A stretch of 64,000 bases of DNA, from positions 62,001-126,000 of the forward strand of contig JACPWG010000183.1 of assembly GCA_016197205.1 (NCBI GenBank), written 5' to 3'. Source of the DNA: Planctomycetota bacterium (GTDB taxonomy: Bacteria; Planctomycetota; MHYJ01; WSZJ01; JACPWG01). The translations under genes and the position numbers were made by a program. The notes below the pieces were generated by a model. The model saw only the letters and a list, made by a program, of their open reading frames with translations, did not search any database and was not told the DNA's origin. Positions 38,964-59,759 of this stretch are shown piece by piece. Positions within the stretch are counted from its first letter, which is position 1. Every line of letters begins with the position of its first letter.

Positions 38964-41900
38964 ATGAGCCTCGAGCTGATCTGCGAAGGTTGCCACCAGG
39001 CCTTGCACTTCCAGGACGCGGGCGGGACGGTCCCGGAGCGCTGCCCGAGGTGCGGCCGGGCACTGCCGCTCTTGCCGCACGAAACGCGAGGCGCCGAGGC
39101 CGCGTCGGTCGTACCGGATGCGACGGCCACGCGCGTGGATCCGGTCGGCTACGTGACGGTGCGCGACCCCGCGCCACCCGGACCCGCGGGCTCCTTTGCG
39201 GCGGTCGCTCCCGTTCGCTCGACGGACACGGAGCGTGGACGCACGCAGCTTCGCGACGCCGAGCACCCTCCTGCCGAGCCGGCCCCCGCGTTCGCGCCCA
39301 CGGCCTCCTTGCTTCCCGTGCCGGCGCCTCCGGACGTGCCCGCCCCTTCGCCCTCCGCCGTGACGCCGCCCCTCCTGGCGCCGGCCGTCTCCTCACACCC
39401 CTCCGCGGCCCAGGGCGGTTCTCCCTCCGATGGCGTTCCGGTCGAGTGGGCCGTCGGCGACGTGCTCCTTGACGTCTACGAAGTGACCGGGGTGCTCGGC
39501 GTCGGCGGCATGGGCAAGGTCTATCGCGTGCATCACCGCGACTGGGACCTCGACCTTGCGGTGAAGAGTCCCCATCCCGGCATCTTCCAGAGTCCGCGGG
39601 GCAAGGAGGAGTTCATTCGCGAGGCGGAAACCTGGGTGCACCTCGGCATCCATCCGCACACTGTAAGCTGCCACTACGTCCGCGTGCTGGGCGGGACGCC
39701 GCGCATCTTCGCGGAGTGCGTGGACGGCGGCAGCCTCGCGGACTGGATCCGCGACGAGCGGCTGTACGCGGCCGGGCCGGCGGGCGCGCTCGGCCGGATC
39801 CTCGACGTCGCCATCCAAATGGCCTGGGGGCTCTCGCACGCACACGACCAGGGGCTGATTCATCAAGACGTGAAGCCGGCGAACGTCATGATGTCGAACG
39901 AAGGCGAGGCGAAGGTCACCGACTTCAGCCTGGCACGCGCGCGCTGGGCGGCCGGCGATCGCGCAGGGCCGCGCCCGGACGGGGATCCTCTCGTGAGCGT
40001 CGGAGGCATGACGCCCGCGTACTGTTCGCCGGAGCAGGCGTCGCGCCAGCCGCTCTCGCCCGCCACCGACCTTTGGTCCTGGGCCGTGTCGGTGCTGCAG
40101 CTCTTTACCGGCAGGGTCGCGTGGGCCGCCGGTCCCTTCGCGCGCCCCGCGCTCGACGCGTGTCTGCTCGCGGCCGGCAGCGTCGGCCTCGCGCCTCCGT
40201 TGCCGGCCTCCGTCGCGGCGTTGCTCGCGAGGTGCTTGGAGCCGGATCCGGCCGCGCGCGGCGCGGGCTTCGGCCCCCTCGCCGACGAGCTGGAAAAGGT
40301 CTACGCCTCGGAGGTCGGCCGTCCCTACCCGCGCGTGCGACCGCGCGGCGTCCGGGGCCGCGGCGGGACGCTCAACAATCGCGCGATCTCGTCCCTCGAC
40401 CTCGGCGAAGCGGCGGAGGCGGAGCGCGTCCTCGGCGAGGCCCTGCGCGAGGAACCGGGTCTGCTCGAGGCGACGTACAATCTGGGCCTCCTGCGCTGGC
40501 GCCGTGGGCTCGTGACCGACGATGTTTTTCTGCGCGCGCTGGCGGCGACCGCCGGACCGGAGGCGGCGCTGTACCGCGGCTGGATCCAGCTCGAACGCGG
40601 GGACGCGGAGGCCGCGGTCCGCGAGCTGGAGGCCGCCGTGCTCGGGCTGCCGTCCCGCGCCGATGCGTGGAAGGCCCTGGGGACCGCGCTCTTTTCCCTC
40701 GGTCGGGCCGACGACGCGGCGCGTGCGCTGGCGGAGGCGCGTCGCCTGGGCGGCGGCGCCGTCGTGGTCGATGCGGAACAGCTCCGCCGTACGCTACCCG
40801 GCCGACGCATCGCGCCGCTCGAGCGGCTGTCGACGGGGGAGCGGCCGCTGAGCGCGGTTGCGCTTTCGGTCGACGGCCTCTCGGTGGCGGCGGGGGACGC
40901 GTCCGGCGTAGTGCGGGTCTGGCGGCTGCCGGGGGAGTTCGCGGTCCATACTTTCCGTGAGGGGGCGAAGGAGGAAGGAGCTGCGGAGCAGGCGACGGAA
41001 AAAAAAGCTGTGAAGGGCGCCGAAGAAGGGCGCTCGGTGTTGTCGCTGGCGTTCGTCGGGGCGCTGGAGAGGCTCGTGGCGGGCTTCGAAGATGGGACGG
41101 TGCGCGCGTGGGACTGCGCGAGCGGCGCGCGGGTCGCGACGCGTGCGCCGGACGGTGCGGAGGCCGCCTGCATGGCCTTCGCCGCGGGGACCGGTCGGGG
41201 CGTGTGCGGCGACCGGCGTGGCGGACTGCGGGAGTTGCCTTGGCCGGCGGCCGACGTCGTCGCCGAGGCCGGCGTCGCGGGCGCGCCTCGTCCAAAGGTA
41301 CTGCGTGCTCATCGCTGGCCGGTCGTGACCGTCGGGCTTTCCGCGGACGGGCGGGTGGCCGCGTCGGGGGCGCAGGACCGGCTGTTGAAGGTTTGGGAGC
41401 TGCGCACGGGGAGCGTCCTGGCGACCTTCGAAGGGCACGCGGGCGCGATCACGTCGGCGGCGCTGTCGGACGACGGCGGGACGGCGCTTTCCGGCTGCGA
41501 AGACGGCACGATGCGGGTGTGGGACGTCCGGATGCGCGCTTGCCTCCGGAGCCTGGACGCGCACGCGGGTCCGGTCTGGTCCGTGGCCTTCCTCCCCGGC
41601 GCACGTGGCATGGTCTCCGCGGGAAACGACGGCCTGGTGCGGCTGTGGAGCCTGGGGAGCGGGCGGTGCGTGCGGACGCTCGAGGCGCACGGGAGCGAGG
41701 CGATCGCGCTCGCCGTCTCGGCCGGCGCCGGTCGAGACGGGGCGCGGCTCGCCTCGGCGGGGCTGGACGGCAAGGTCCGCGTGTGGCAGGCCGGCGCGCG
41801 CGGGATCGCCGCGAGCCCGTACTTCCTGTGCCGGCCCGTCTCCGCCGAGCGGATGGTGAAGGACGAGCGGCTGTTCGGGGCGATCCTCGAGCACGCGCAG

Positions 41901-43127
41901 GAGTCGGCGCAGGCCGGCGATTTCCGGGAAGCGCACCGACTGGTGCGGTCGGCGCTCGCGCTGCCGGGTTTCGAGCGTTCTCCCGAGGGCATGCTCCGGC
42001 TTTCGAAGCTCGGGGGCGTGGCCGTGGCGACGCGCGTGCTCGGGGCGTGGGAGCGCGGAGACCTCGGATCGACCGGCGTCGCCTCGGCGGCGGTGGAGTT
42101 CGACTTCGATGCGCGACGCGCGTTCACGGGCGGCGCGGATGGCGTGCTTCGGAGTTGGGACCTTCTGAAAGGGGATTGTGCGCGGCCGTTCCCGCTGGCC
42201 GCCGGCCCGATTTCGCGGCTGGCGGCGTCCGCGTTCGGCTCGTGCGCCGTGGTGGCGGGGGAGGGGCGGGAGGTCTACAACGTGGATTCGCGGCGCGGCC
42301 TGATCCTGTCGAGCTGCGCCGGGCACACGGACCGGGTCACGGGCCTGGGGTTTATCCCTGAGGCGGACGCGCTGGTGACCGCGAGCCTGGACGGGACGCT
42401 CCGGTTCTGGGAGCTGTCCGGCGGCGGCTGCCGGCGGACCCTTCGCGCGCGGGACGGGGCGCTCGTGCACGTCGCGGTCTCGGGTGACGGCCGGCACCTG
42501 GTTTCGGTGGGCGCGAACGGCGGCGTGCTCGTCTGGGACGCGCACTCGGGCGCGCCGCTCTTGACCCTCGCGCGCGGGGGGCGGCCGTTCGAGCTGGCCG
42601 CGTTTTCGCCGGGCGGCGGCTACGTGCTCGGCGGGCGCACCGACGGGCGGCTGGTGCTCTGGGACCTGTCGACGGCGTCGGAGGCGGCGGTCTTTTGGGG
42701 GCCGGAGGCGCCTGTGCGCGCCTTTGCCTTCGCGCCCGGGGGCGGGCTCGCGTGCGTGGCGAGCGCGGACGGGACCGTGACCGTCTGGCGGCTGCCGGAA
42801 GGGAAGGAGTCAGCCGCCGTGCGCGCGCACTCAGGGAGCTTCGGTCGAGCGGCCTTCTCGCGGGACGGCCGGTTCTGCCTCGCCGCGCACGCGCGCGGGC
42901 TGAGCCTGCTGGTGCTCGACTGGGAGCTGGAGGTGGCGCCCCTGGAGCCGGAGGGCGGGCCGCCGGGGCGCGGGCCGGGTCGGGGAGTGGGCCGGCGCGA
43001 CGGCCGCCGCGACGCGCGGGAGCTGCCGGGTGCGCTGCGCGGCGACCTGCCGTGGCGTCCGCCGGGCGTGGCGGGCCGGGTGGCGCGGTGGCTGCGGCGG
43101 GGGTTCGCGGCGCGGGGGAGGGAGTAG
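38964..43127 (+). CDS. Serine/threonine protein kinase with TPR and WD40 repeats
   Basis: The 1387-residue protein has an N-terminal zinc ribbon (CEGCHQ ... CPRCGR), a Pro/Ala linker and a Hanks-type kinase domain at about 160-440. Kinase landmarks are GVLGVGGMGKVYRV (P-loop), AVKSP (Lys), LIHQDVKPANVMM, VTDFSLARA and PAYCSPEQA. Catalytic Asp residues are kept, but HRD is HQD and DFG is DFS. TPR-like repeats (about 465-600) and roughly a dozen WD40 repeats to residue 1320 follow, ending in a basic tail. No transmembrane helix is evident. It likely phosphorylates partners recruited through the WD40 propellers. The last 91 bases of the gene are duplicated at 48086-48176. Confidence 0.92.
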   Translation: MSLELICEGCHQALHFQDAGGTVPERCPRCGRALPLLPHETRGAEAASVVPDATATRVDPVGYVTVRDPAPPGPAGSFAAVAPVRSTDTERGRTQLRDAEHPPAEPAPAFAPTASLLPVPAPPDVPAPSPSAVTPPLLAPAVSSHPSAAQGGSPSDGVPVEWAVGDVLLDVYEVTGVLGVGGMGKVYRVHHRDWDLDLAVKSPHPGIFQSPRGKEEFIREAETWVHLGIHPHTVSCHYVRVLGGTPRIFAECVDGGSLADWIRDERLYAAGPAGALGRILDVAIQMAWGLSHAHDQGLIHQDVKPANVMMSNEGEAKVTDFSLARARWAAGDRAGPRPDGDPLVSVGGMTPAYCSPEQASRQPLSPATDLWSWAVSVLQLFTGRVAWAAGPFARPALDACLLAAGSVGLAPPLPASVAALLARCLEPDPAARGAGFGPLADELEKVYASEVGRPYPRVRPRGVRGRGGTLNNRAISSLDLGEAAEAERVLGEALREEPGLLEATYNLGLLRWRRGLVTDDVFLRALAATAGPEAALYRGWIQLERGDAEAAVRELEAAVLGLPSRADAWKALGTALFSLGRADDAARALAEARRLGGGAVVVDAEQLRRTLPGRRIAPLERLSTGERPLSAVALSVDGLSVAAGDASGVVRVWRLPGEFAVHTFREGAKEEGAAEQATEKKAVKGAEEGRSVLSLAFVGALERLVAGFEDGTVRAWDCASGARVATRAPDGAEAACMAFAAGTGRGVCGDRRGGLRELPWPAADVVAEAGVAGAPRPKVLRAHRWPVVTVGLSADGRVAASGAQDRLLKVWELRTGSVLATFEGHAGAITSAALSDDGGTALSGCEDGTMRVWDVRMRACLRSLDAHAGPVWSVAFLPGARGMVSAGNDGLVRLWSLGSGRCVRTLEAHGSEAIALAVSAGAGRDGARLASAGLDGKVRVWQAGARGIAASPYFLCRPVSAERMVKDERLFGAILEHAQESAQAGDFREAHRLVRSALALPGFERSPEGMLRLSKLGGVAVATRVLGAWERGDLGSTGVASAAVEFDFDARRAFTGGADGVLRSWDLLKGDCARPFPLAAGPISRLAASAFGSCAVVAGEGREVYNVDSRRGLILSSCAGHTDRVTGLGFIPEADALVTASLDGTLRFWELSGGGCRRTLRARDGALVHVAVSGDGRHLVSVGANGGVLVWDAHSGAPLLTLARGGRPFELAAFSPGGGYVLGGRTDGRLVLWDLSTASEAAVFWGPEAPVRAFAFAPGGGLACVASADGTVTVWRLPEGKESAAVRAHSGSFGRAAFSRDGRFCLAAHARGLSLLVLDWELEVAPLEPEGGPPGRGPGRGVGRRDGRRDARELPGALRGDLPWRPPGVAGRVARWLRRGFAARGRE
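43037..43127 (+). repeat. Left copy of a kinase 3'-end direct repeat
   Basis: The final 91 bases of the WD40 kinase gene, including its stop codon, match 48086-48176 without gaps. I count 10 differences over the last 87 positions. The two copies bracket the STAND/AbiEii cassette in the same orientation. Confidence 0.85.
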
Positions 43128-43422: not shown

Positions 43423-46400
43423 ATGCCCCTCGGCATCGGACAACCGATCTCCGGTCGAGAGTTCGAAAGAGAGACCTCCGCATGGACGGGGGAGCGTTTC
43501 GGCTTCCTCTGCAACTCCCTCGTCGCTGCCCTTTCCGAACGATGCTTCTCGTCGGACCTGTCTCTCACCTTCACCCACAATGCGGCCGATGCTGGGGTGG
43601 ACGCCGAGGTCACCGTGGAGCTTGGCCAATCCCCACCCGGCGAGGCCGGCCAGCTTCTCAGCCCCGGCTGGAACGTCTTCCAGTACAAGAAGCGTGACGT
43701 CCACGCCCGCGGGCGCCGGCAAGCGATCTCCGACCTGAAACGCAACGTCAAGGGCGCGCTCGCCGCCGTGCAAGCGCGGTGCGGCCGAACCCTCAGCCGC
43801 TACGCCCTCCTCACGAACATCGGCCTCGATCACCAGCACAAGACGGAGCTCAAGTCCGCCCTGCTATCCGGATACGCCCGGACGTCCCAAGTCGGAGTTG
43901 AGGTTTCCGGCGCGGAGGAAATCGCCCAGCTTCTCAATAATCGCCCACACCTGCGCGCCGCGTATTTCCAACCCTCCGCGTTCAGAACGTGGAAGTCCGC
44001 GCTTGACCTCCTCCTCCGCTCGAAATCCCTCGGTCGGGTCGTCCACCTCGAGGGGCGGAAGGAGTCGATCGAGCGTCTCGAAGCCATGCTGGCGGACGCC
44101 GGAGTTCGGGTGATTGTACTCTGGGGGCAGCATGACGTCGGGAAGAGCCGCCTCGCCCTGGAAGCAACCCGGACGCGACAGGACTCCGTGGTCGTGGCGA
44201 CAGCGCCCTTGGAGTTCTCCCCGGCGGAGCTTCGGGCCCTCCCGGGGGCTGACAGGGAGACGATCTGCGTTCTCGAGGATCCGGCCCGGGAGGACGTCGA
44301 GACCCTCATCCGGGAAGCCCTTGCGGAGCCCAAGCTCAAGCTGATCCTCACGGTTCCTGCTTTTGCCCATACGGTGGTACCTTCCTACGGGGCAGACACA
44401 AGAGTAAGGCTGCTCCAAGTCGAACCGCTACCCGAGAGCGAGTCCCGGCGGCTCATCGAGCAGGTGGATCCGCTCCTCCCCTTCGGTCTGGCCGAGTGGA
44501 TTGTCCGGCGGTCCGCTGGACTTCCTGGCCCGATCTTGGCTGCCGCCGCGCTGGGCGGAAAGTTGTATGCCGGGGCGCCGGACTTCGAGGTGGCGGTCGG
44601 CCGCGAGTATGCAACCCGGATCGCGAGCCTTCTTGGCCCGAGCGCCCTGAACGCGGCAAGCCTCGTTTCGGTGATGACCCAGACCGGAGTCGCCGGCGAG
44701 GCCGCACGGGAGCTTCAGCGGCTATGCGAAATCCTTCAGACGCCCCAGGCCGAAGTGACGAACGAGCTCGACCGTCTTGTCGACGCCGGCTTTCTGCGCC
44801 GGCGCGGTTCCTATGTCGAGGTGTCAATCCCCTTCCTCGCCAACCACTTGGCGAGTCAACTGGTGGCATCGCACGAGAGCGAGCTTTTGGCGCTCCTTGC
44901 CCTGCCCTCCGGCGCGGGGCTCCGGTTCCTGCGCCGTGTCGGAGGCCTCGCGCCAAGTTGCGCTCATGGCTTGTGGGACTTGCTCTTCTCCGATGGCGGC
45001 CTCTTTCATGGGCGACACTTGCTCGATAGTGTCTCGCACCTGAAGGCGGTGGCGGGGGCGCTTCCCGAAAGGACCCTCTCGGCCCTCCGGGCAGTCCTGA
45101 CCGGACTGAGTTTCGAGGAGCTTCGACGAATCGACCGAAGAGTGCGAGTCGAGCTGGTGTTCCTCCTTGAACAACCGCTCTTCCGAAAGAGCACGAGTGC
45201 GGAGGCGCTGCGGTTGATCGGCCTGCTCGCCAATGCCGAGGACGTTCGCGATTCGAAGCACGCGTCAGGTGTGTTCGCCGAGTGTTTTGCCACCGAGCAT
45301 CCCCAGTTTCCGCTGCCCTTGGAAGACCGCTTGCAGGTGCTGTGCGAATTCGCCGACTCCGCGGATCCCAGGCGGCGGCAACTCGCTTGTAGCGCGGTCG
45401 AAGAAGGCATGCCCGGCAATCGCGGGATGATCCGCCTCCGTTCGTCCGATGGTGCAAGGCCCTTTGACCCGCAGCCCGTCATGACGTACGCTGAACTGTG
45501 GGCCTATGCGCAGTCGCTGATGGAAGTGGCATGGCGAATGGCAGAGGGCTCGGACGACGCCTCCGCAGGGGCCCGGCGCGCGCTGCCCGGACTGACTCGA
45601 CGTCTAGGACTATACTGTCGCCCACGGCTGTGCGTCCCTTGGTTCAAGCGGTTGGTCGACGGAGCCGTTCAGGAACACCCGACGGTGGAGATCGCCCCAA
45701 TTGCCGACGCAATCGACGCGGTGGTTCGAGGGGTTCTCGACGCGCTAGCGCGGGAGGCATTGCCGGCGGAGGGCCGGGAGGAGCTGGTCGCGGACCAAGA
45801 CGCCCTCGCGACATTGGCGGGTCGGCTAAAGTCCGCCTCGTTCTCTGTCCGCCTTCGCCGTCGGCTCGGAAGTGACGCCTGGACGGGAGACGACCCGGCC
45901 GCGGACCAGGAGCTTAAGGCGCTCGCGGACGAGGCTGTAGCCCGGCCGGAATTGATGACGGCAGAGCTCTGGGAGTGGCTGCCGTCGATGGTCATCCATC
46001 ATGCCCCGGGCTTTGTCCGCCTCGTGGGGAAACGCGACACGAATCGGGTTCTTTGCGACAGGGTGGAGTCCGTCGGCGCCGCGTCGGACGGTGCGTACCT
46101 GTTCTCCTCGTACTGGTTGGGTTGGGTAGAGGTCGATCCGGTGGCCGCCGAGAAGCGCTTGGATGAGCTCGCCGCCAACGACCTGGTTGATGGGCGAGCC
46201 GTGGTGGGGGCGACCTGCACTCTGCCGGCGAGCTCGGCCGCCGTCGACAGGCTCATCGGCCAGGTTGGACGAGGGCGCGCGGATGCCGAATACGTGGCAC
46301 GGTCGATTGAGTGCCATCGATGGATGGAACCGCTCGCCCCGTGCGATGCGGAGCGCTTGTTCCGCGTGATCGCAGGGGAGGGGCTGCGCGAAGGCCGCCT

Positions 46401-47337
46401 CGTCGTCGAGCTCCTCGGTATGTGGCTGCATCTTCACAAAGCGCTGGGTCCCGAGCTCGAAAACCTCGCGTGGCAGACTCTGGAGGCCGATCCTCCCGTC
46501 GGCGGGCGTGCTGAAGAAGAATGGGCGTTCGATCAGCTTGCGGCGCATCTGGCGGAGCGCGATTCCAACCGCGCATTCCAGTTGCTTGAACGCCTCTTGG
46601 GCGGTGATCGACAGGACAAATGGAGTCCTGTTGACAATGAGTGCAAGGTCGAGTTTTGGCGGAAGCTGAAATCAGTGGATGCCGACCGCGCCATCGGCAT
46701 CCTCCTGCGTGCGGCTGAGAACGGGTCTGTGCACAGTTGGCTCTTGCGGAGGGCGATGCAACATCTGCTGGACCCGGTGCAGGACTCGGCGATTCTGCTT
46801 GGTCATGCCCAACGTACGGTGGCGGTGGCTCGGATGCTGGCGGAAGGAGTGGCCTTCGAGAGCGCAGGGTTCTGGGCTTTCGCAAGCGCCGTGACGGACC
46901 TTTACCCTGAGGATGACTCGCTCTGGCATGGCATCGCGACGCACTTGGAGGGATGGACTGGGGTCCGAGAAGGCTCGCTGTCCGCTTTCCTTGAGGAGCG
47001 GTGTCTCCAGGTCAGGGAAGCCATTCGTGCCCGATCGCTCTCGCCCGTATTGCGGAGGCGGCTCGACGGGTGGCTTGAGAGAGTCGAAGTGCGAATCGGC
47101 GAGCACTTGGTCTGGGAATACGACGAGGACATTGACGGGCTGATGGGCCACATCCACCAGAAGGACTCCCAGCGCATCTGGGCCATCGGCCGCATCTTGA
47201 AACACGCCCGGTTCGACGAAGTCCGCAAACTTCTGACGGTTGAGGACATCGAGGAGGCCCTGCCCCAGGTGGACCTGCCCAAGAAGCGGCGAGAGCTCCT
47301 GGAGGCTGCGCTCCCGATCTGGAAAAATGCCGGCTAG
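43423..47337 (+). CDS. Mrr-like nuclease - STAND NTPase - helical repeat protein (candidate antiphage, Avs-like)
   Basis: The 1304-residue protein has three parts. Residues 10-150 resemble an Mrr/PD-(D/E)XK nuclease: AADAGVDAEVTVEL with D60, then FQYKKRD with Q87-x-K89. Residues about 200-450 form a STAND-type P-loop NTPase: Walker A GQHDVGKS (235-242), Walker B ICVLED (281-286), then a winged-helix segment (ELDRLVDAGFLRRRGSY). The remaining 800 or so residues are helical repeats without recognisable sequence family. This nuclease-STAND-repeat order is that of Avs antiviral proteins, where the repeats sense phage proteins and the nuclease attacks DNA (family knowledge; role here inferred). 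The start at 43423 precedes the nuclease fold; 43291 would add a basic tail. The AbiEii gene overlaps its end by 11 bases. Confidence 0.85.
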   Translation: MPLGIGQPISGREFERETSAWTGERFGFLCNSLVAALSERCFSSDLSLTFTHNAADAGVDAEVTVELGQSPPGEAGQLLSPGWNVFQYKKRDVHARGRRQAISDLKRNVKGALAAVQARCGRTLSRYALLTNIGLDHQHKTELKSALLSGYARTSQVGVEVSGAEEIAQLLNNRPHLRAAYFQPSAFRTWKSALDLLLRSKSLGRVVHLEGRKESIERLEAMLADAGVRVIVLWGQHDVGKSRLALEATRTRQDSVVVATAPLEFSPAELRALPGADRETICVLEDPAREDVETLIREALAEPKLKLILTVPAFAHTVVPSYGADTRVRLLQVEPLPESESRRLIEQVDPLLPFGLAEWIVRRSAGLPGPILAAAALGGKLYAGAPDFEVAVGREYATRIASLLGPSALNAASLVSVMTQTGVAGEAARELQRLCEILQTPQAEVTNELDRLVDAGFLRRRGSYVEVSIPFLANHLASQLVASHESELLALLALPSGAGLRFLRRVGGLAPSCAHGLWDLLFSDGGLFHGRHLLDSVSHLKAVAGALPERTLSALRAVLTGLSFEELRRIDRRVRVELVFLLEQPLFRKSTSAEALRLIGLLANAEDVRDSKHASGVFAECFATEHPQFPLPLEDRLQVLCEFADSADPRRRQLACSAVEEGMPGNRGMIRLRSSDGARPFDPQPVMTYAELWAYAQSLMEVAWRMAEGSDDASAGARRALPGLTRRLGLYCRPRLCVPWFKRLVDGAVQEHPTVEIAPIADAIDAVVRGVLDALAREALPAEGREELVADQDALATLAGRLKSASFSVRLRRRLGSDAWTGDDPAADQELKALADEAVARPELMTAELWEWLPSMVIHHAPGFVRLVGKRDTNRVLCDRVESVGAASDGAYLFSSYWLGWVEVDPVAAEKRLDELAANDLVDGRAVVGATCTLPASSAAVDRLIGQVGRGRADAEYVARSIECHRWMEPLAPCDAERLFRVIAGEGLREGRLVVELLGMWLHLHKALGPELENLAWQTLEADPPVGGRAEEEWAFDQLAAHLAERDSNRAFQLLERLLGGDRQDKWSPVDNECKVEFWRKLKSVDADRAIGILLRAAENGSVHSWLLRRAMQHLLDPVQDSAILLGHAQRTVAVARMLAEGVAFESAGFWAFASAVTDLYPEDDSLWHGIATHLEGWTGVREGSLSAFLEERCLQVREAIRARSLSPVLRRRLDGWLERVEVRIGEHLVWEYDEDIDGLMGHIHQKDSQRIWAIGRILKHARFDEVRKLLTVEDIEEALPQVDLPKKRRELLEAALPIWKNAG

Positions 47338-48010
47338 TATCCTGACCCCCTTGCAAAAGCTGGTGCTGGAGCGACTCTTCGACTCCGGGTTGGGGGATCG
47401 CGGTTACTTCCTGAGCGGTGGAACAGCGTTGGCAGAGTTCTACCTCCAGCACCGCCTGTCGGACGATCTCGACATCTTCACACGGAAGCCGAACCTGTCG
47501 GCGGAAGACCTCGAGCTGGTTCGGCACGTATTCGAGGAGCTCGGACTCGAGACGAATCGTGAGAGGAGGGTACCGAGCTTCGCCGAGTACTTCGTCTGGC
47601 AGCCGGGCTCCCCTGACAAGCTGAAGCTTCAGTTCGTAGGCGGCGAGGTCCCCGCGACGATGGCCCCGCCCTTCATGCGGGGGACGATCGTCGTGGACTC
47701 GCTGGAGGACATCGCGGTCAACAAGGTCTGCACCATCGTGGACAGATTCGAAGCCAAGGACTTCGTTGATCTCCACTTCATCCTGAGAGAGACCCGGTTC
47801 CAACTGGACTACCTGCTCGCCCGGGCCAGTGAGAAGGACATGGACGTCGAGGGCGAGGAAGGCCAACTGACGTTTGCGACTTCGCTGCTTCGTGTGCGGG
47901 ATCTGGCTCAGTTGCCTCGGATGATCAAGCCGCTCACGCTGGAGCAGCTTCGCGTGGATTTGACTCCCCGTGCTGAGGAACTCATCCGCCGCCTTCGCCC
48001 GCGGGGCTAG
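47327..48010 (+). CDS. AbiEii/AbiGii-type nucleotidyltransferase toxin-like protein
   Basis: The 227-residue protein has the DNA polymerase-beta-like signature of AbiEii toxins: YFLSGGTALAEF (about residues 27-38), then LSDDLDIF with acidic D46, D47 and D49. It continues with VDSLEDIAVNKVCTIVDRFEAKDFVDLHFI, the conserved lysine and Asp-Phe-x-Asp region. AbiEii transfers nucleotides to RNA (tRNA acceptor ends or GTP-binding in the original AbiE) and is usually paired with the AbiEi antitoxin. No AbiEi homologue is present; the partner is instead the overlapping STAND protein gene. The ATG at 47327 lies 8 bases inside the upstream gene's end, so the two are co-translated. Confidence 0.87.
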   Translation: MPASILTPLQKLVLERLFDSGLGDRGYFLSGGTALAEFYLQHRLSDDLDIFTRKPNLSAEDLELVRHVFEELGLETNRERRVPSFAEYFVWQPGSPDKLKLQFVGGEVPATMAPPFMRGTIVVDSLEDIAVNKVCTIVDRFEAKDFVDLHFILRETRFQLDYLLARASEKDMDVEGEEGQLTFATSLLRVRDLAQLPRMIKPLTLEQLRVDLTPRAEELIRRLRPRG

Positions 48011-48254: not shown

Positions 48255-48599
48255 CTAATTGCCCGCGGGCGGCGCGAGCACGGCCTTCACGGGCGGCTCG
48301 GTGTAGTAGTAGCGATAGGTGGAGTAGCTGGCCGTCAGGCCGCTGGAGGGGACTTCGACAGGCTTCGGCCAGCCGCTCTTGCCGAAGGTGTACTTGATGG
48401 TACACGAGAGGAGGAAGGCAGCGATCGCGATGACGAGAAAGCTGCGCATCTGCTCCTCGAGGTCGTTCGCGTCCCGGAACTCAGCCTTCGAGAGCAGGGA
48501 GCCCTCCACCTCCGAGCGCACGTAGTGGATCTTCTCGCCGCAGCGGCGGCAGAAGGCCTCGGTGGTGGGATTGTCGAACTCGCAGCTAGGGCACTTCAT
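48255..48599 (-). CDS. Zinc-ribbon single-pass membrane protein
   Basis: The 114-residue protein starts with a treble CxxC...CxxC zinc ribbon (MKCPSCEFDN and FCRRCGEKI). A helix of mixed charge follows, then a transmembrane segment (SFLVIAIAAFLLSCTIKY, about 53-70) and a Tyr-rich external tail. It is 9 bases downstream of the TPR protein gene, in the operon with the signal-peptidase-like protein. Function unknown; the ribbon probably mediates protein contacts. Confidence 0.78.
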   Translation of the reverse strand: MKCPSCEFDNPTTEAFCRRCGEKIHYVRSEVEGSLLSKAEFRDANDLEEQMRSFLVIAIAAFLLSCTIKYTFGKSGWPKPVEVPSSGLTASYSTYRYYYTEPPVKAVLAPPAGN

Positions 48600-48608
48600 G
48601 GCGGACTC

Positions 48609-49976
48609 TCACTTGAGCTCCTTGAGCCGACGGTCGAGCTCCGGCTGGTTTCTGTCGATGGCAAGGCTCGCTTGGTACAGTTTCGCGGCGTCCGCGCGCG
48701 TTTTGGGTTTGTCGTAGAGGACGGCCCGGTTCCTCAGCAGGACCGCATCCGGCGGCTCGTGCAGGTCGTTCGCCGCCTTCAGGGCCAGGTCCATCGTCGC
48801 TTCGGCGGCGGGCGAGTCGGTCCAGTACTGCGCGCAGGCGAGGTTGTTCAGCGCGGCTACCTTCACGACGTCGGGCACCTTTCGCTTCAGGGCCTCGCCG
48901 AAAACGTAGCTTAGGAACTGGCCGAACGACTCGCTCGGGGGTTCGCCCGGGCTGCGCAGGCTGCCGAAACCCGCATTGAGCCAGACGTCCGTGATCTCCG
49001 CCGCTTCGGGCGTCGAGCCGCGCAGATACCCGGAGACGTTCACGATGGCCCGCTTGTGCGCCCACTGGCAGAGGAAGGAATTGTCGAGGCTTGCCTTCGC
49101 CCGGTTGTACGCGGTGACCATCTCCAGGCTCCAGGTGTGGCCTGGGCGAAGCGTGCTCAGCGTCACGTTCAGATCCTGATTGAGCTTGTCCACCTCCTCC
49201 ACGGCCATCGGCGGCTGCTCCGCGACGATCTGCGCCCAGATGTAGATCAGGTTCACCAGGGGCAGCTTGCCGCGCGGGCAGAGCGCATACGCCCGCAGAT
49301 ACTCGTCCCTCGCCTGGTTCCACCGCTTGGTCTGGAGGAAGAGCGTGGCGCGCCCGAGGTAGAGATCGAGGAGCCCGTCGATCGTCGGGACCCCCATCTC
49401 CTCCTCCTGGCACTTCTTGAACCAGCTCTCCGCGGCCGCCCGGTCCCCGCGACGGAGGGCGATGTGTCCCAGCTCGATGAGCGGCTCCGGGGCCTGGGGC
49501 TCCGCGGTCATGGCCTGTTCCAGCAGCCGCGCGGCGTCGTCCAGGTGGGCCTTGTCGCCGGAGAAGTCCGCCCGCTTGATCCGGGCGACCGCCGAGGACA
49601 CGAGCACCGTCCAGGGCGGATTCGGTCTTGCCAACAGTCCGTCCAGGAGGCCGATCGCCTCTTCGAGCCCGGTGACGTCCTTCGTCACGAGCGTCGCGCC
49701 GTCGATTTTGGACTTCGCGTAGAATTCCTGGGCCGGCCCGTACTCCGGACGGGCCTTGCGCGCGGCGTCCAACGCCGAGCTCGCCTCGGCGACCTGGTCG
49801 CTGAAGAAGCAGAGCAGCGCCTGGGAGAAATTCGTCGAGAGCCGGTAGTCCCGGTAGCCGCTCACGGACAAGTAGAGCGAGAGAATGGTGAGCAGAAGGG
49901 CCGCGACCCCCTCGGAGAGGGAAAGGGTCGTGAACTGATACCGACCCACGCGAAGGACCGGTTTGAAATTGTCCAT
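48609..49976 (-). CDS. Membrane-anchored TPR protein
   Basis: The 455-residue protein has an N-terminal transmembrane helix (GVAALLLTILSLYLSVSGY, about 23-41). TPR-like helical repeats fill the rest (for example LIELGHIALRRGDRAAAESW and LYLGRATLFLQTKRWNQARDEY), ending in AKLYQASLAIDRNQPELDRRL. No enzymatic motif is seen. It is the middle gene of a three-gene operon, so it likely scaffolds an envelope complex with the degenerate signal-peptidase-like protein. Confidence 0.82.
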   Translation of the reverse strand: MDNFKPVLRVGRYQFTTLSLSEGVAALLLTILSLYLSVSGYRDYRLSTNFSQALLCFFSDQVAEASSALDAARKARPEYGPAQEFYAKSKIDGATLVTKDVTGLEEAIGLLDGLLARPNPPWTVLVSSAVARIKRADFSGDKAHLDDAARLLEQAMTAEPQAPEPLIELGHIALRRGDRAAAESWFKKCQEEEMGVPTIDGLLDLYLGRATLFLQTKRWNQARDEYLRAYALCPRGKLPLVNLIYIWAQIVAEQPPMAVEEVDKLNQDLNVTLSTLRPGHTWSLEMVTAYNRAKASLDNSFLCQWAHKRAIVNVSGYLRGSTPEAAEITDVWLNAGFGSLRSPGEPPSESFGQFLSYVFGEALKRKVPDVVKVAALNNLACAQYWTDSPAAEATMDLALKAANDLHEPPDAVLLRNRAVLYDKPKTRADAAKLYQASLAIDRNQPELDRRLKELK

Positions 49977-50062: not shown

Positions 50063-50575
50063 TCAGCGGGGATTGAAGAGCGGGGCCGCCTTGCCGCGGA
50101 CCGAATGGACGGAGATCGGGCCGAGGCTGCGGCTATCGAACCCCACCTCGCCCCGGTAGTCGCCGAGGATGAAGTAGTGGTCGCGCGGGACCATGATCTC
50201 CGGGACGTCTTCGGAGGCGCGGCCCGACTCGCGAATGTAGTCCTCGCCGACGATTTGGCCGTTGATCTTCAGCTTCCCCTTTTCCATGGACACGCGTTCC
50301 CCGGGCAGCGCGATCAGCCTGCCCACGAAGCGCTGCCGCGGGTTTAGGGCGGAGTCGGAGAGGTATTCGTAGTGGAGGATGGTCCGCCGGACCTCCATGT
50401 TCTGGTTGGGGAGCCGCTCTTTCTCCAGGAAGTAGATGTAGCTGTCCTTGGGGATGAGCGGCATCATCTGCTCAGACTCGACCCTCGTGCAACTGTAGGT
50501 GCGAATCGCGTAGATGATCCCCCACAGGAGGAAAAACCCGCAGAGGTACTTGATGTACTTTTCGATGACCCACAT
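50063..50575 (-). CDS. Signal peptidase I-like (S26) protein lacking the catalytic dyad
   Basis: The 170-residue protein has an N-terminal transmembrane helix (YLCGFFLLWGIIYAI) and S26 boxes. These are VESEQMMPLIPKDSYIYF (box B), RFVGRLIALPGERV (box D) and ILGDYRGEVGFDSRSLGPI (box E). In active enzymes box B reads S-x-S-M-x-P and box D K-R-V-I-x-x-P-G-D; here the serine position before Met37 is Gln36 and the lysine position is Gly. The fold seems retained but Ser/Lys catalysis is not expected. It heads the operon with the TPR and zinc-ribbon proteins. Confidence 0.83.
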   Translation of the reverse strand: MWVIEKYIKYLCGFFLLWGIIYAIRTYSCTRVESEQMMPLIPKDSYIYFLEKERLPNQNMEVRRTILHYEYLSDSALNPRQRFVGRLIALPGERVSMEKGKLKINGQIVGEDYIRESGRASEDVPEIMVPRDHYFILGDYRGEVGFDSRSLGPISVHSVRGKAAPLFNPR

Positions 50576-56852: not shown

Positions 56853-59759
56853 ATGAAGCCAGGACGCCGCGCGTCGCGAAGGGCGATGGCGCTCATCGTA
56901 TCTCTCGGGATGCTCACGCTGCTGGCGATCGTCGCAACCACGTTCGTGGCGCTTTCGCGGTCCGAGAGGGTGAGCTCCGAAAACTACGTGATCAAAGTGA
57001 GGGCGCGCATGCTCGCCGAGTCGGGCATCGACTACGCGCTCGCCAAGCTCCGTACGCCGCTCGGGCTCGGGCCCGAGTCCGTGTACGGGGGGGAGGACCT
57101 GAACGGGAACGGCGCCCAAGTCGGCGGTCCGTTCAACGCGGACGCGCTGCTGGATGACGCGAATGGGAACGCCGGCGGGGCAGTGGATTTCCTGGCCTGC
57201 CCCTTGCGGTTCGCCCGTCGCCCGAGCTGGTTCGCGGACGCGAACGGCGACGGGTTGCCCGACCTCCTCGACATCGTGGAGCGGGGGGTCGCGGCCAGGC
57301 GCGGCTATTCCGGCGTGCTGCCGGGCACGCTGCACGCGCTCGGCGACACCTTCGCGATCCGGCTCCTCGACACCTCCTCCGAGCTGTACGTCAACGGCGC
57401 CGGAAACGGCTACCGCGCGCTCTACCGGAACCTCTGCCTGCTCCTGCTCGGCAATGCGAGCCTCGGGGACCGGATCCAGGCCCGGCAGCCCTACGGCACG
57501 CCCGAGGACCTCGTGGTCACGGCGGCGCTCACCGAGGCCGAGTTCGCGGTCCTGCGCCCCTACCTCACCTGCCAGGCCTGGGTCGACTCTTCCACCATGC
57601 GGCCGGACCCCCAGGCCTCCCTCCTCGTGATGCCACGCGCCTTCCGCCGGCTCGACCGGGTGGAGCCGCGCGCCCCCATCAACGTGAACGGCGCCGACTT
57701 CAACCTCCTCGTCGCCGTGTTCCAGGGGATCTCCGGCTTCTTCACCGACAACAACGCGCCGGTCAAGAGCTTCTTCTCCATCAACGCGACGCGCGCCCGT
57801 GCGCTCGCCCAGGCGATCGTCGACGCTCGCGCCGAGACCTTCGTCGACGCGAACCCGAACGGCGTCTGGGATCCCGGGGAGGCGTTCGTGGACCGGAACG
57901 CGAACGGGCGGTACGACGGCCCGTTCCGGACGTGGGACCAGTTCGAGAATTTCCTGGGCGGCGTGCAGGGCTTCGTCGGGAATTTCAACCGGGCCTTCCG
58001 GGAACTGGTCCTGGCCAACGCCAACCCGAACTCGTGCCTGAACAAGTTCCAGCCGGACGCGCACCGGTACCACGGGACCGACAAAGCCGACCTCGTCGTG
58101 TACACCACGGAGCTTTGTTTTTCGGCCACGGGCTTCTTCGACATCTCCAGCTACGGTCGGGTCACGGACTCGAGCAACCGGGTGGTGGGGGAGGACGAGG
58201 TCCGCGCGGTGGTCAAGCTCTTCGAGACGCGCGTGCTGACCACGCAGGAGGACTTCGAGTCGGCGGGGGTCAAGGTGACGATGGACCCGGACGTGAGGAC
58301 GCTGCCCGAGGAGGTGTCGGATTTCGCGACGGAGTCCTTCACGGACACGAACGGCGACGGGCGCTTCACCAAAGGGGACGCCTTCCAGGACGCGAACGGC
58401 GACGGCGCCCGGGACGGCCCCGCGATCTACGACGGACAGGTGACGCTCCGCCCCGCGGATCCGCCCGGCAGCCTGCCCTGGGGGGACGCTTCGGCCCTCA
58501 CCTTCCGCGCGCTCTTCAACGACAGCGCCGCGACCAGCCGGGTCGGACGCGGCGACGCCTATCCCAGCCTCGTCGCGGACGTGGCGACGCCGGCCAACCG
58601 CAGGTTCCCGTTGTCCTCCGGCGCGACGGTCTCGAACGTCGTGCGGGGCGCATCCCTCGTCAAGGACCTGAGCGGCTCGAACAACTACTCGGACCTCTTC
58701 CCGGACGGCCTTTTCATCCGGCGCGAGCGGCAGAAGACGATCTACTACAGCCCGATCGGCAACATCCCGCCCCTCACGGGGTCGGTCGGCTTCTGGGTGA
58801 AGCCCACGTGGCGCGGCATTCCCGCCGCCCTGCAGTATCGCGACCTGCTGGGCATGGACCAGCAGTTCGCCTTCGCGCCCAACCGGGGGCGGATCTTCCT
58901 GATGTACGCCCTGACCCCGGGCGTCTTCGTCCTGGAGGCCCTCTGGAATCACGACTCCGCGGGCACGGCGGCCAACGAAGTGGACAACGACCAGGGGTAC
59001 GTTCCGCCGATTTTCCAGTGCCTGCACACCCTGGACATCCGAAGCAACAACTGGAACCCGGGCCAATGGCATTACTTCGCGCTCCGGTGGCAGGACATGA
59101 TGCGCTTCAACTTCTTCCTCGACGGCAATTCGTCCGCCTCTCTGTTCGAGGCGGCGCTCGAGCCGGGCGTCACGATCATCCGCATCGGGCCGGTGCCGAC
59201 GCTGAACCTGTTCACGCTCGGCTCGAACATGCCCTGGTTCAACACGATCGGCTCGGGGACGTTCGACGACCTGCGCGTCCATCGGAGCCTGGTCCCCAAC
59301 TCGGACGTCGGCCTCGCCCCGCCGTGGCGGTACGATGACACGGGGTATCCCGGCTATTCCACCTACGTCGGCCGCTTCACGCTCCCGCAGGGCGCGGTGG
59401 TACGAACCCTCGGGATGACGAGCCTCCGTCCGTCGGAAAATTACCGCGGCGATCCCCTGGACAACCGCGTCTCCACCCCGCGGCGCCGGAGGCCCGACGT
59501 CAGCCTGTCGTACAAGGTCAGCTCGGAGACCGGATGGCGCGTCCATCCCCGGTCGACCGATCCCAATCGGGTGGACGGGGAGGAGCTGCCGGTCGATCCC
59601 AACACGCCCGCGGTCGGGGCCGGCGAGACCTTCCAGTTCATGCTGACCTTCGATCGCCGCGGACAGGATCCCTTCCGGAACTCCCCGACGGTGGACGACG
59701 TGCGGGTCACGTACGCCCTCGGCTCCCCGCAGTTCTTGAGCTACAACGTCGTGCCGTAG
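56853..59759 (+). CDS. GspK/PilX-like pseudopilin with calcium loops and LamG-like domain
   Basis: The 968-residue protein begins SRRAMALIVSLGMLTLLAIV, an N-terminal hydrophobic helix like GspK or PilX minor pseudopilins, followed by VRARMLAESGIDYALAKL. The Glu at position +5 of true pilins is absent, as in GspK. A GspK-like helical region contains EF-hand-like loops (DANGDGLPDLLD, DTNGDGRFTKGD, DANGDGARDG). The C-terminal half has a LamG-like sandwich (GSVGFWVKPTWRG, NPGQWHYFALRW, FFLDGNSS, FDDLRVHRSL). It is far longer than GspK (about 320). Two ATGs (56838, 56853) are possible; GAGGAG favours 56853. It is probably a surface tip or secretion-linked protein (inference). Confidence 0.8.
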   Translation: MKPGRRASRRAMALIVSLGMLTLLAIVATTFVALSRSERVSSENYVIKVRARMLAESGIDYALAKLRTPLGLGPESVYGGEDLNGNGAQVGGPFNADALLDDANGNAGGAVDFLACPLRFARRPSWFADANGDGLPDLLDIVERGVAARRGYSGVLPGTLHALGDTFAIRLLDTSSELYVNGAGNGYRALYRNLCLLLLGNASLGDRIQARQPYGTPEDLVVTAALTEAEFAVLRPYLTCQAWVDSSTMRPDPQASLLVMPRAFRRLDRVEPRAPINVNGADFNLLVAVFQGISGFFTDNNAPVKSFFSINATRARALAQAIVDARAETFVDANPNGVWDPGEAFVDRNANGRYDGPFRTWDQFENFLGGVQGFVGNFNRAFRELVLANANPNSCLNKFQPDAHRYHGTDKADLVVYTTELCFSATGFFDISSYGRVTDSSNRVVGEDEVRAVVKLFETRVLTTQEDFESAGVKVTMDPDVRTLPEEVSDFATESFTDTNGDGRFTKGDAFQDANGDGARDGPAIYDGQVTLRPADPPGSLPWGDASALTFRALFNDSAATSRVGRGDAYPSLVADVATPANRRFPLSSGATVSNVVRGASLVKDLSGSNNYSDLFPDGLFIRRERQKTIYYSPIGNIPPLTGSVGFWVKPTWRGIPAALQYRDLLGMDQQFAFAPNRGRIFLMYALTPGVFVLEALWNHDSAGTAANEVDNDQGYVPPIFQCLHTLDIRSNNWNPGQWHYFALRWQDMMRFNFFLDGNSSASLFEAALEPGVTIIRIGPVPTLNLFTLGSNMPWFNTIGSGTFDDLRVHRSLVPNSDVGLAPPWRYDDTGYPGYSTYVGRFTLPQGAVVRTLGMTSLRPSENYRGDPLDNRVSTPRRRRPDVSLSYKVSSETGWRVHPRSTDPNRVDGEELPVDPNTPAVGAGETFQFMLTFDRRGQDPFRNSPTVDDVRVTYALGSPQFLSYNVVP

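What the first reader, a model, noticed from the sequence alone, without database searches (positions are those of the whole stretch)
50063..50575. Signal peptidase I fold without its Ser/Lys dyad in a membrane operon
Boxes B, D and E of S26 peptidases are recognisable, but the nucleophile position holds Gln36 and the general-base position Gly. It is co-transcribed with a membrane TPR protein and a zinc-ribbon membrane protein. This suggests a pseudo-peptidase that binds signal sequences or regulates another peptidase.
Basis: partly seen in the sequence, partly recalled or inferred. Interest (0 to 1): 0.6.

Follow-up and report, generated by a model that had tools for sequence, protein, structure and literature searches.

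The report
Dead signal peptidase in conserved membrane cassette
This gene encodes a protein with the shape of the enzyme that trims export tags off proteins but without its cutting residues, and in many planctomycete bacteria it travels with the same two membrane-protein genes, which suggests the old enzyme was recycled as a building block of an undescribed envelope complex.

Summary
Window 50063-50575 (minus strand) encodes a 170-aa S26 signal-peptidase-I homologue with Gln36 where the nucleophilic Ser should be and Gly85 where the general-base Lys should be. This is neither an alignment slip nor decay. It belongs to a Planctomycetota group in which the Lys position is G/A/S/T in all 51 scorable rows of 52 and Ser remains in 7 of 52. 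The Gly272 and Ser278 equivalents are lost too, while structural residues stay conserved.

The S26-TPR-zinc-ribbon gene order is conserved. A TPR and/or zinc-ribbon gene follows 43 of 54 dyad-less S26 genes and 0 of 25 dyad-bearing ones. In the window's class the same 13 of 23 genomes carry both S26psi and the zinc-ribbon gene. A HEAT-repeat gene often lies divergently upstream; a few dyad-less S26 genes precede a secretin/PilM operon instead.

The signal-sequence-reader idea is weakened: groove positions constrained in active enzymes vary here. Most likely it is a non-catalytic scaffold subunit of an undescribed inner-membrane complex. SipA and SpsA are precedents for the kind; my literature searches did not find the cassette. 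Complex formation and function remain inferred.

The parts
50063..50575 (-). S26psi: signal-peptidase-I homologue, 170 aa, N-terminal hydrophobic helix plus S26 domain; Q36 and G85 replace the catalytic Ser and Lys
   Evidence: AlphaFold2 model of moderate confidence (mean pLDDT 65.5) matches SpsB and SipA best
48609..49976 (-). TPR protein, 455 aa, N-terminal hydrophobic segment (about residues 20-38) then a TPR alpha-solenoid
   Evidence: model mean pLDDT 76.1, helical solenoid; homologues directly downstream of S26psi in relatives
48255..48599 (-). Zinc-ribbon membrane protein, 114 aa: N-terminal CxxC...CxxC, one hydrophobic segment (about 54-72), short conserved C-terminal tail
   Evidence: third gene of the cassette in relatives; single strong copy in this genome
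50117..50164 (-). Box E region (residues 138-153) retained: D139, R141, D147-S148-R149, G152-P153; the S278-equivalent serine of active enzymes is not retained in the family
50318..50323 (-). G85-R86: general-base Lys replaced by Gly, neighbouring Arg retained
   Evidence: G21 A16 S13 T1 of 51 psi rows; K 25 of 25 dyad-bearing rows
50468..50470 (-). Q36 at the nucleophile position
   Evidence: S in 7 of 52 psi rows; S in 25 of 25 dyad-bearing rows

Best explanation
A signal-peptidase-I fold that lost catalysis in an ancestor within Planctomycetota and is kept as a non-catalytic structural or docking subunit (S26psi) of an inner-membrane complex with a membrane-anchored TPR protein and a zinc-ribbon membrane protein. 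Shown: the dyad and two further active-site positions are gone family-wide, scaffold residues are conserved, the gene is under purifying selection in the genus tested, and the three-gene order is kept across 23 GTDB families. Inferred: that the three proteins bind one another; that the S26 and TPR domains face the periplasm with the zinc ribbon in the cytosol; that the complex helps assemble or hold other envelope proteins, the S26 domain giving membrane-proximal docking and the TPR, HEAT and toroid parts binding clients.
For: Dyad loss: K at the Lys position in 0 of 51 scorable psi rows against 25 of 25 dyad-bearing rows; S at the nucleophile in 7 of 52 against 25 of 25; G272 equivalent G in 2 of 51 against 25 of 25; S278 equivalent S in 25 of 25 dyad-bearing rows but not among the commonest psi residues. 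Scaffold kept: M37 44/52, P39 47/51, R86 49/51, G92 52/52, P130 51/52, D147 48/49, S148 46/49, R149 45/48, G152 49/49. Tree: all 25 dyad-bearing plus 2 dyad-less rows lie on one side of a branch (98/92), the other 52 dyad-less rows outside it. Cassette: TPR and/or zinc-ribbon gene downstream in 43 of 54 dyad-less and 0 of 25 dyad-bearing loci. In the class the same 13 of 23 genomes have strong S26psi and strong zinc-ribbon hits, at neighbouring places. Order S26-TPR-ZR kept; S26 stop and TPR start overlap by 4 bases in 11 of 32 loci where both were called. dN/dS 0.14-0.52 for S26psi in the 10 pairs of 5 same-genus species. Zinc-ribbon proteins have more K/R before than after the hydrophobic segment in 25 of 33. 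Divergent HEAT-repeat gene in 16 of 43 cassette loci. Groove positions relaxed.
Against: No direct evidence of a complex, of expression, or of any phenotype. The association of dyad loss with the cassette is essentially one event on the tree, so the Fisher p is not an independent-trials test. K/R counts do not support an orientation for S26psi (more before than after in 6 of 31) or for the TPR protein (15 of 31). 11 of 54 dyad-less S26 genes lack the cassette in the DNA held; 5 of these precede a secretin instead. The divergent HEAT gene is absent beside the window's cassette. The only close experimental precedent, SipA, is a pilus assembly factor whose mechanism is itself unknown.
Confidence: 0.5

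Rival explanations
1. Signal-peptide or tail receptor: the S26 groove still binds the end of signal peptides, pilin N-termini or another short extended peptide without cutting, holding clients for the TPR protein, as proposed for SipA.
For: Fold kept. The SipA authors propose peptide binding in a conserved cleft and saw a peptide in it. A minority of dyad-less S26 genes lie directly upstream of a secretin/PilM operon.
Against: Groove positions are much more variable than in dyad-bearing relatives: I86 equivalent entropy 3.38 against 1.18 bits, S88 3.26 against 0.79, I144 2.75 against 1.08, with overall means 2.57 against 2.03. In SipA itself a mutation predicted to occlude the cleft had no effect on polymerisation.
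Confidence: 0.2
2. Regulator of the active signal peptidase: S26psi pairs with or competes with the housekeeping LepB and tunes export-signal processing.
For: The same genome carries another S26 gene with an intact dyad (contig C140, IPTGSM and FIKRVVG) that could be the partner.
Against: 0 of 25 dyad-bearing S26 genes were beside the cassette. The intact paralogue has a long insertion and lies on another contig. No physical evidence.
Confidence: 0.1
3. Type IV pilus or type II secretion assembly factor in general: the cassette serves pilus or secretin biogenesis.
For: Dyad-less S26 genes elsewhere on the tree sit directly upstream of secretin, with PilM in L118 (Pfam Secretin in L067, L118, L143; L115 and L131 by sequence similarity). 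SipA is a pilus assembly factor.
Against: Secretin and PilM are in 23 of 23 genomes of the class, with or without the cassette (13 of 23), so the cassette is not required for them there. No secretin or PilM lies beside the window's cassette among the gene products scanned. Secretin-type S26psi scored E<1e-50 in only 6 of 392 genomes.
Confidence: 0.12
4. Active enzyme with a non-canonical catalytic apparatus.
For: Some conserved polar residues remain (D65, D139, D147, S148).
Against: These are conserved alike in dyad-bearing enzymes, and no Lys, His or Cys reaches 70% in the psi rows. Gly272 and Ser278 equivalents are lost as well.
Confidence: 0.04
5. Decaying pseudogene or misaligned ordinary signal peptidase.
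For: None beyond the missing residues.
Against: Open frames and conserved scaffold in relatives; dN/dS below 1 in all 10 pairs; unambiguous register against solved SPases.
Confidence: 0.01

Closest known systems
Streptococcus pyogenes SipA/LepA (PDB 4N31, 4K8W), signal-peptidase-like pilus assembly factor
   Same: SPase-I fold without Ser-Lys dyad; Gly at the Lys position, Gly272 and Ser278 equivalents also replaced; among the best sequence and structure matches
   Different: SipA lies in sortase-pilus clusters of Gram-positives and keeps the peptide cleft almost entirely. Here the groove positions vary and the partners are a TPR and a zinc-ribbon membrane protein.
Staphylococcus aureus SpsA
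   Same: Signal peptidase homologue lacking the catalytic residues, listed as inactive in a review
   Different: Described there as dispensable next to SpsB; no cassette mentioned in the passages seen. Not compared by sequence here.
Type I signal peptidase (LepB, SpsB, TIGR02227)
   Same: Fold, boxes B/D/E, N-terminal hydrophobic segment
   Different: Catalytic Ser and Lys and two supporting positions absent
TcaA-like membrane proteins (zinc ribbon, TM, extracellular part)
   Same: Weak match of the zinc-ribbon protein's ribbon and TM, E=7.3e-4, 18.5 bits against a cut-off of 550
   Different: Only the first 64 residues match, far below the cut-off; not a member

Membership tests
Type I signal peptidase (S26A) | S26 fold/profile | tested here: met
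   Pfam 69.1 bits against cut-off 22.9; NCBIfam TIGR02227 78.1 against 47; structure matches
Type I signal peptidase (S26A) | nucleophilic Ser in box B | tested here: not met
   Q36; S in 7 of 52 psi rows
Type I signal peptidase (S26A) | general-base Lys in box D | tested here: not met
   G85; K in 0 of 51 psi rows
Type I signal peptidase (S26A) | signal peptide cleavage | not testable with these tools
   needs an in vitro assay
SipA-type pseudo-signal peptidase | SPase fold without the dyad, supporting active-site residues replaced | tested here: met
   SipA residues passages
SipA-type pseudo-signal peptidase | conserved peptide-binding cleft | tested here: not met
   groove columns far more variable than in dyad-bearing S26
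SipA-type pseudo-signal peptidase | location in a sortase-pilus gene cluster | tested here: not met
   cassette genes and 8 neighbouring gene products scanned; no sortase or pilin family among the hits shown (for one protein only 25 of 46 families were shown)
SipA-type pseudo-signal peptidase | required for pilus polymerisation | not testable with these tools
   needs a deletion phenotype
S26psi-TPR-ZR cassette (this report) | dyad-less S26, then TM-TPR, then zinc-ribbon-TM on one strand | tested here: met
   window; both TPR and ZR detected in 33 of 79 loci surveyed, one of the two in 10 more

The most novel reading that the evidence does not exclude
Planctomycetota possess a lineage-wide inner-membrane complex whose core is a retired signal peptidase. 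The S26 fold, stripped of catalysis and with a relaxed peptide groove, was recruited as a structural hub together with a TPR solenoid and a zinc-ribbon membrane protein (in some lineages with a fused squalene-cyclase-like toroid), and other members of the same dead fold were recruited to secretin/PilM operons. It would be a second, non-Gram-positive origin of signal-peptidase pseudoenzymes as assembly factors.
Probability: 0.35. Interest if true: 0.7.

Novelty: new variant of a known kind. Interest (0 to 1): 0.55.

Why it matters
Signal-peptidase pseudoenzymes are known from a few Gram-positive cases. Here one is found in at least 43 of 392 sampled planctomycete genomes (23 GTDB families) as the first gene of a conserved three-gene cassette. 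That gives a defined, testable candidate complex in a phylum with unusual and poorly understood cell envelopes. It also warns that a protein above the curated cut-offs of Peptidase_S26 and TIGR02227 would be named signal peptidase I although it lacks both catalytic residues.

Tried and rejected
Alternative dyad: searched the 52 psi rows for conserved K/H/C/S/T/D/E; only D65, D139, D147 and S148 pass 70%, all shared with dyad-bearing enzymes.

Anti-phage defence: no PADLOC hit for S26psi or the zinc-ribbon protein; the TPR protein's hit to PycTM (E=0.025) was taken as noise. The TPR model's fold search gave generic TPR solenoids, no specific function.

General type IV pilus link: secretin and PilM are in 23 of 23 class genomes whether or not the cassette is present, so phyletic profiling gave nothing.

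Viral contigs: no relative. Plasmids: 54 records matched; of the 15 rows shown 14 are annotated lepB. The cassette's presence outside Planctomycetota was not testable: the one genome-contig scan used patterns from the closest relatives and found only Planctomycetota MAGs.

Orientation from K/R counts: inconclusive for S26psi and TPR.

Gene calling was a home-made codon-position caller; S26 was missed in 3 of 43 loci (L108, L109, L140), so gap figures cover 32 loci only. The S26 model has low confidence at residues 28-54, which carry the nucleophile loop, so register there rests on sequence alignment.

Choice of loci: the 79 surveyed loci are not random. One search took dyad-less-looking hits plus the window; one search took the next best-scoring matches in rank order; picked further listed matches, partly for short open frames. 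Choice was by the S26 match, not by its neighbours.

Full report
WHAT IS THERE. The ORF at window 50063-50575 is on the minus strand, ATG start, 170 codons. It matches Peptidase_S26 (E=5.6e-19) and the NCBIfam signal peptidase I model above cut-off. Downstream on the same strand follow a 455-aa protein with an N-terminal hydrophobic segment and TPRs (48609-49976, 86 bp gap) and a 114-aa zinc-ribbon protein with one hydrophobic segment (48255-48599, 9 bp gap). The window lies in a 9.1 Mb, 197-contig assembly. The named relatives of its S26 gene are all Planctomycetota MAGs, two of them labelled Candidatus Brocadiia and Planctomycetia.

THE DYAD IS REALLY MISSING. A profile of 17 family members aligned to solved signal peptidases puts the catalytic Ser and Lys of the B. 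anthracis and S. aureus enzymes at the columns of Q36 and G85, and SipA's Asp and Gly at the same columns (residue identities for SipA). In 52 dyad-less rows outside the dyad-bearing clade, the Lys column is G21 A16 S13 T1 of 51 scorable rows, and the Ser column has S in 7 of 52. In 25 dyad-bearing rows they are K 25/25 and S 25/25. The Gly272-equivalent column is G in 25 of 25 dyad-bearing rows but 2 of 51 psi rows, and the Ser278-equivalent S of 25/25 is replaced by mixed residues. Structural positions stay: M37 44/52, P39 47/51, R86 49/51, G92 52/52, P130 51/52, D139 46/51, D147 48/49, S148 46/49, R149 45/48, G152 49/49. No Lys, His or Cys column reaches 70%, so there is no visible substitute dyad. 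Within one genus (5 species, 10 pairs) S26psi dN/dS is 0.14-0.52 (simple counting method, dS 0.72-1.24, so rough). It is a maintained pseudoenzyme, not a decaying gene.

THE CASSETTE. I surveyed 79 S26 loci; 78 came from relatives found in searches of 59 and 392 genomes and one is the window. 25 have both Ser and Lys; none of them has a homologous TPR or zinc-ribbon gene within 3.5 kb downstream. Of 54 without the pair, 33 have both, 8 the zinc ribbon only and 2 the TPR only, together 43; 11 have neither. The 11 include a contig that is too short to tell (L067, 3026 bases), which nevertheless shows a secretin. The Fisher p of 2e-12 ignores relatedness. On the maximum-likelihood tree (79 rows) all dyad-bearing rows plus two dyad-less ones (L127, L154) lie on one side of a branch with support 98/92, so the association is mainly one ancient split followed by long retention. 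Within the window's class the strong S26psi hits (E<=5.2e-33) and strong zinc-ribbon hits (E<=1.3e-15) fall in the same 13 of 23 genomes at neighbouring positions; the remaining zinc-ribbon hits are weak partial ones in other genomes. The 43 cassette loci come from 43 genomes in 23 GTDB families (handles; families in the tree), a lower bound because not every match was fetched.

GENE LAYOUT. S26 stop and TPR start overlap by 4 bases in 11 of 32 loci where both were called, and the gap was at most 129 bp in all 32, which points to translational coupling. A divergently transcribed HEAT-repeat gene belongs to one cluster in 16 of 43 cassette loci (HEAT by Pfam in L054 and L069). Beside the window's cassette that place is taken by an amidohydrolase. 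In several lineages the zinc-ribbon protein carries a large C-terminal part; in L156 it matches the squalene-hopene cyclase C-terminal family, and L151 looks alike by sequence.

A SECOND CONTEXT. In L067, L115, L118, L131 and L143 the dyad-less S26 gene is directly upstream of a secretin-like gene (Pfam Secretin confirmed in L067, L118 and L143, PilM in L118; L115 and L131 by sequence similarity to L118). A profile of these five scored E<1e-50 in 6 of 392 genomes. One genome (G077) has both contexts (L118 and L156). Secretin and PilM genes are in 23 of 23 genomes of the class regardless of the cassette, so I do not read the cassette as a pilus gene set.

HOW IT LIKELY WORKS. The groove test argues against a conserved signal-peptide groove: I86, S88 and I144 equivalents have entropies of 3.38, 3.26 and 2.75 bits in psi rows against 1.18, 0.79 and 1.08 in dyad-bearing rows, where the overall means are 2.57 and 2.03. 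This differs from SipA, whose authors report an almost entirely conserved cleft, although their cleft-occluding mutant was still functional (passages only). The Lys position is confined to small residues, while fold-defining residues are kept. I therefore favour a structural or docking role in a membrane complex with the TPR and zinc-ribbon proteins. Complex formation, topology and client are inference. For orientation only the zinc-ribbon protein gives a signal (25 of 33 with more K/R before the segment).

STRUCTURE. The AlphaFold2 model of S26psi (8 sequences, mean pLDDT 65.5, residues 28-54 below 50) best matches SpsB (Z 9.5, 114 aligned, rmsd 3.6) and SipA (Z 9.2, 97 aligned, rmsd 3.5). 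The TPR model (mean pLDDT 76.1) is a helical solenoid that matches TPR proteins generally.

WHAT IS KNOWN. SipA (PMC4049620; passages read) and S. aureus SpsA (PMC12445088; passages read) are dyad-less signal peptidase homologues, and a 2026 paper discusses SipA's lost dyad (PMC12984324; passages). I found no description of this planctomycete family or cassette in the searches (listings only; that library lacks most subscription papers). The E. coli numbering of active-site and groove residues other than those quoted in the passages is recalled.

VERDICT. A confirmed observation and a new variant of a known kind: a planctomycete pseudo-signal-peptidase in a conserved membrane cassette of unknown function.

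Noticed in passing
G000 contig C30, about 28.3-29.4 kb (L005): A further S26 paralogue in the same genome with box B IPTAAM: Ala at the nucleophile but Lys kept (FVKRVVG), possibly another partial loss of the dyad.
   Followed up: partly
window 43597-48010 (+): A 1246-aa protein with a weak PADLOC match to PD-Lambda-4_A (E=2.4e-6) directly followed by an AbiEii-family nucleotidyltransferase: a candidate defence pair next to the cassette.
   Followed up: no
window 38964-43127 (+): Protein kinase domain fused to many WD40 repeats, 1387 aa.
   Followed up: no
window 35854-38730 (+): HEAT repeats followed by a von Willebrand factor A domain, 958 aa.
   Followed up: no
window 56886-59759 (+): 957-aa protein whose N-terminus looks like a PilX/GspK-type pilin-like segment (recalled resemblance; no Pfam hit).
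   Followed up: partly
L142 711-2132, L149 2089-3219, L151 7343-8719, L156 923-2380: Zinc-ribbon members of the cassette with large extra C-terminal parts; L156 matches the squalene-hopene cyclase C-terminal family.
   Followed up: partly
L068, L069, L071, L120, L135, downstream of the cassette: A convergently transcribed gene of one cluster; in L068 it reads like an NtrC-type response regulator.
   Followed up: no
L127 and L154: Two dyad-less S26 genes inside the dyad-bearing clade with no cassette: apparently independent losses.
   Followed up: no
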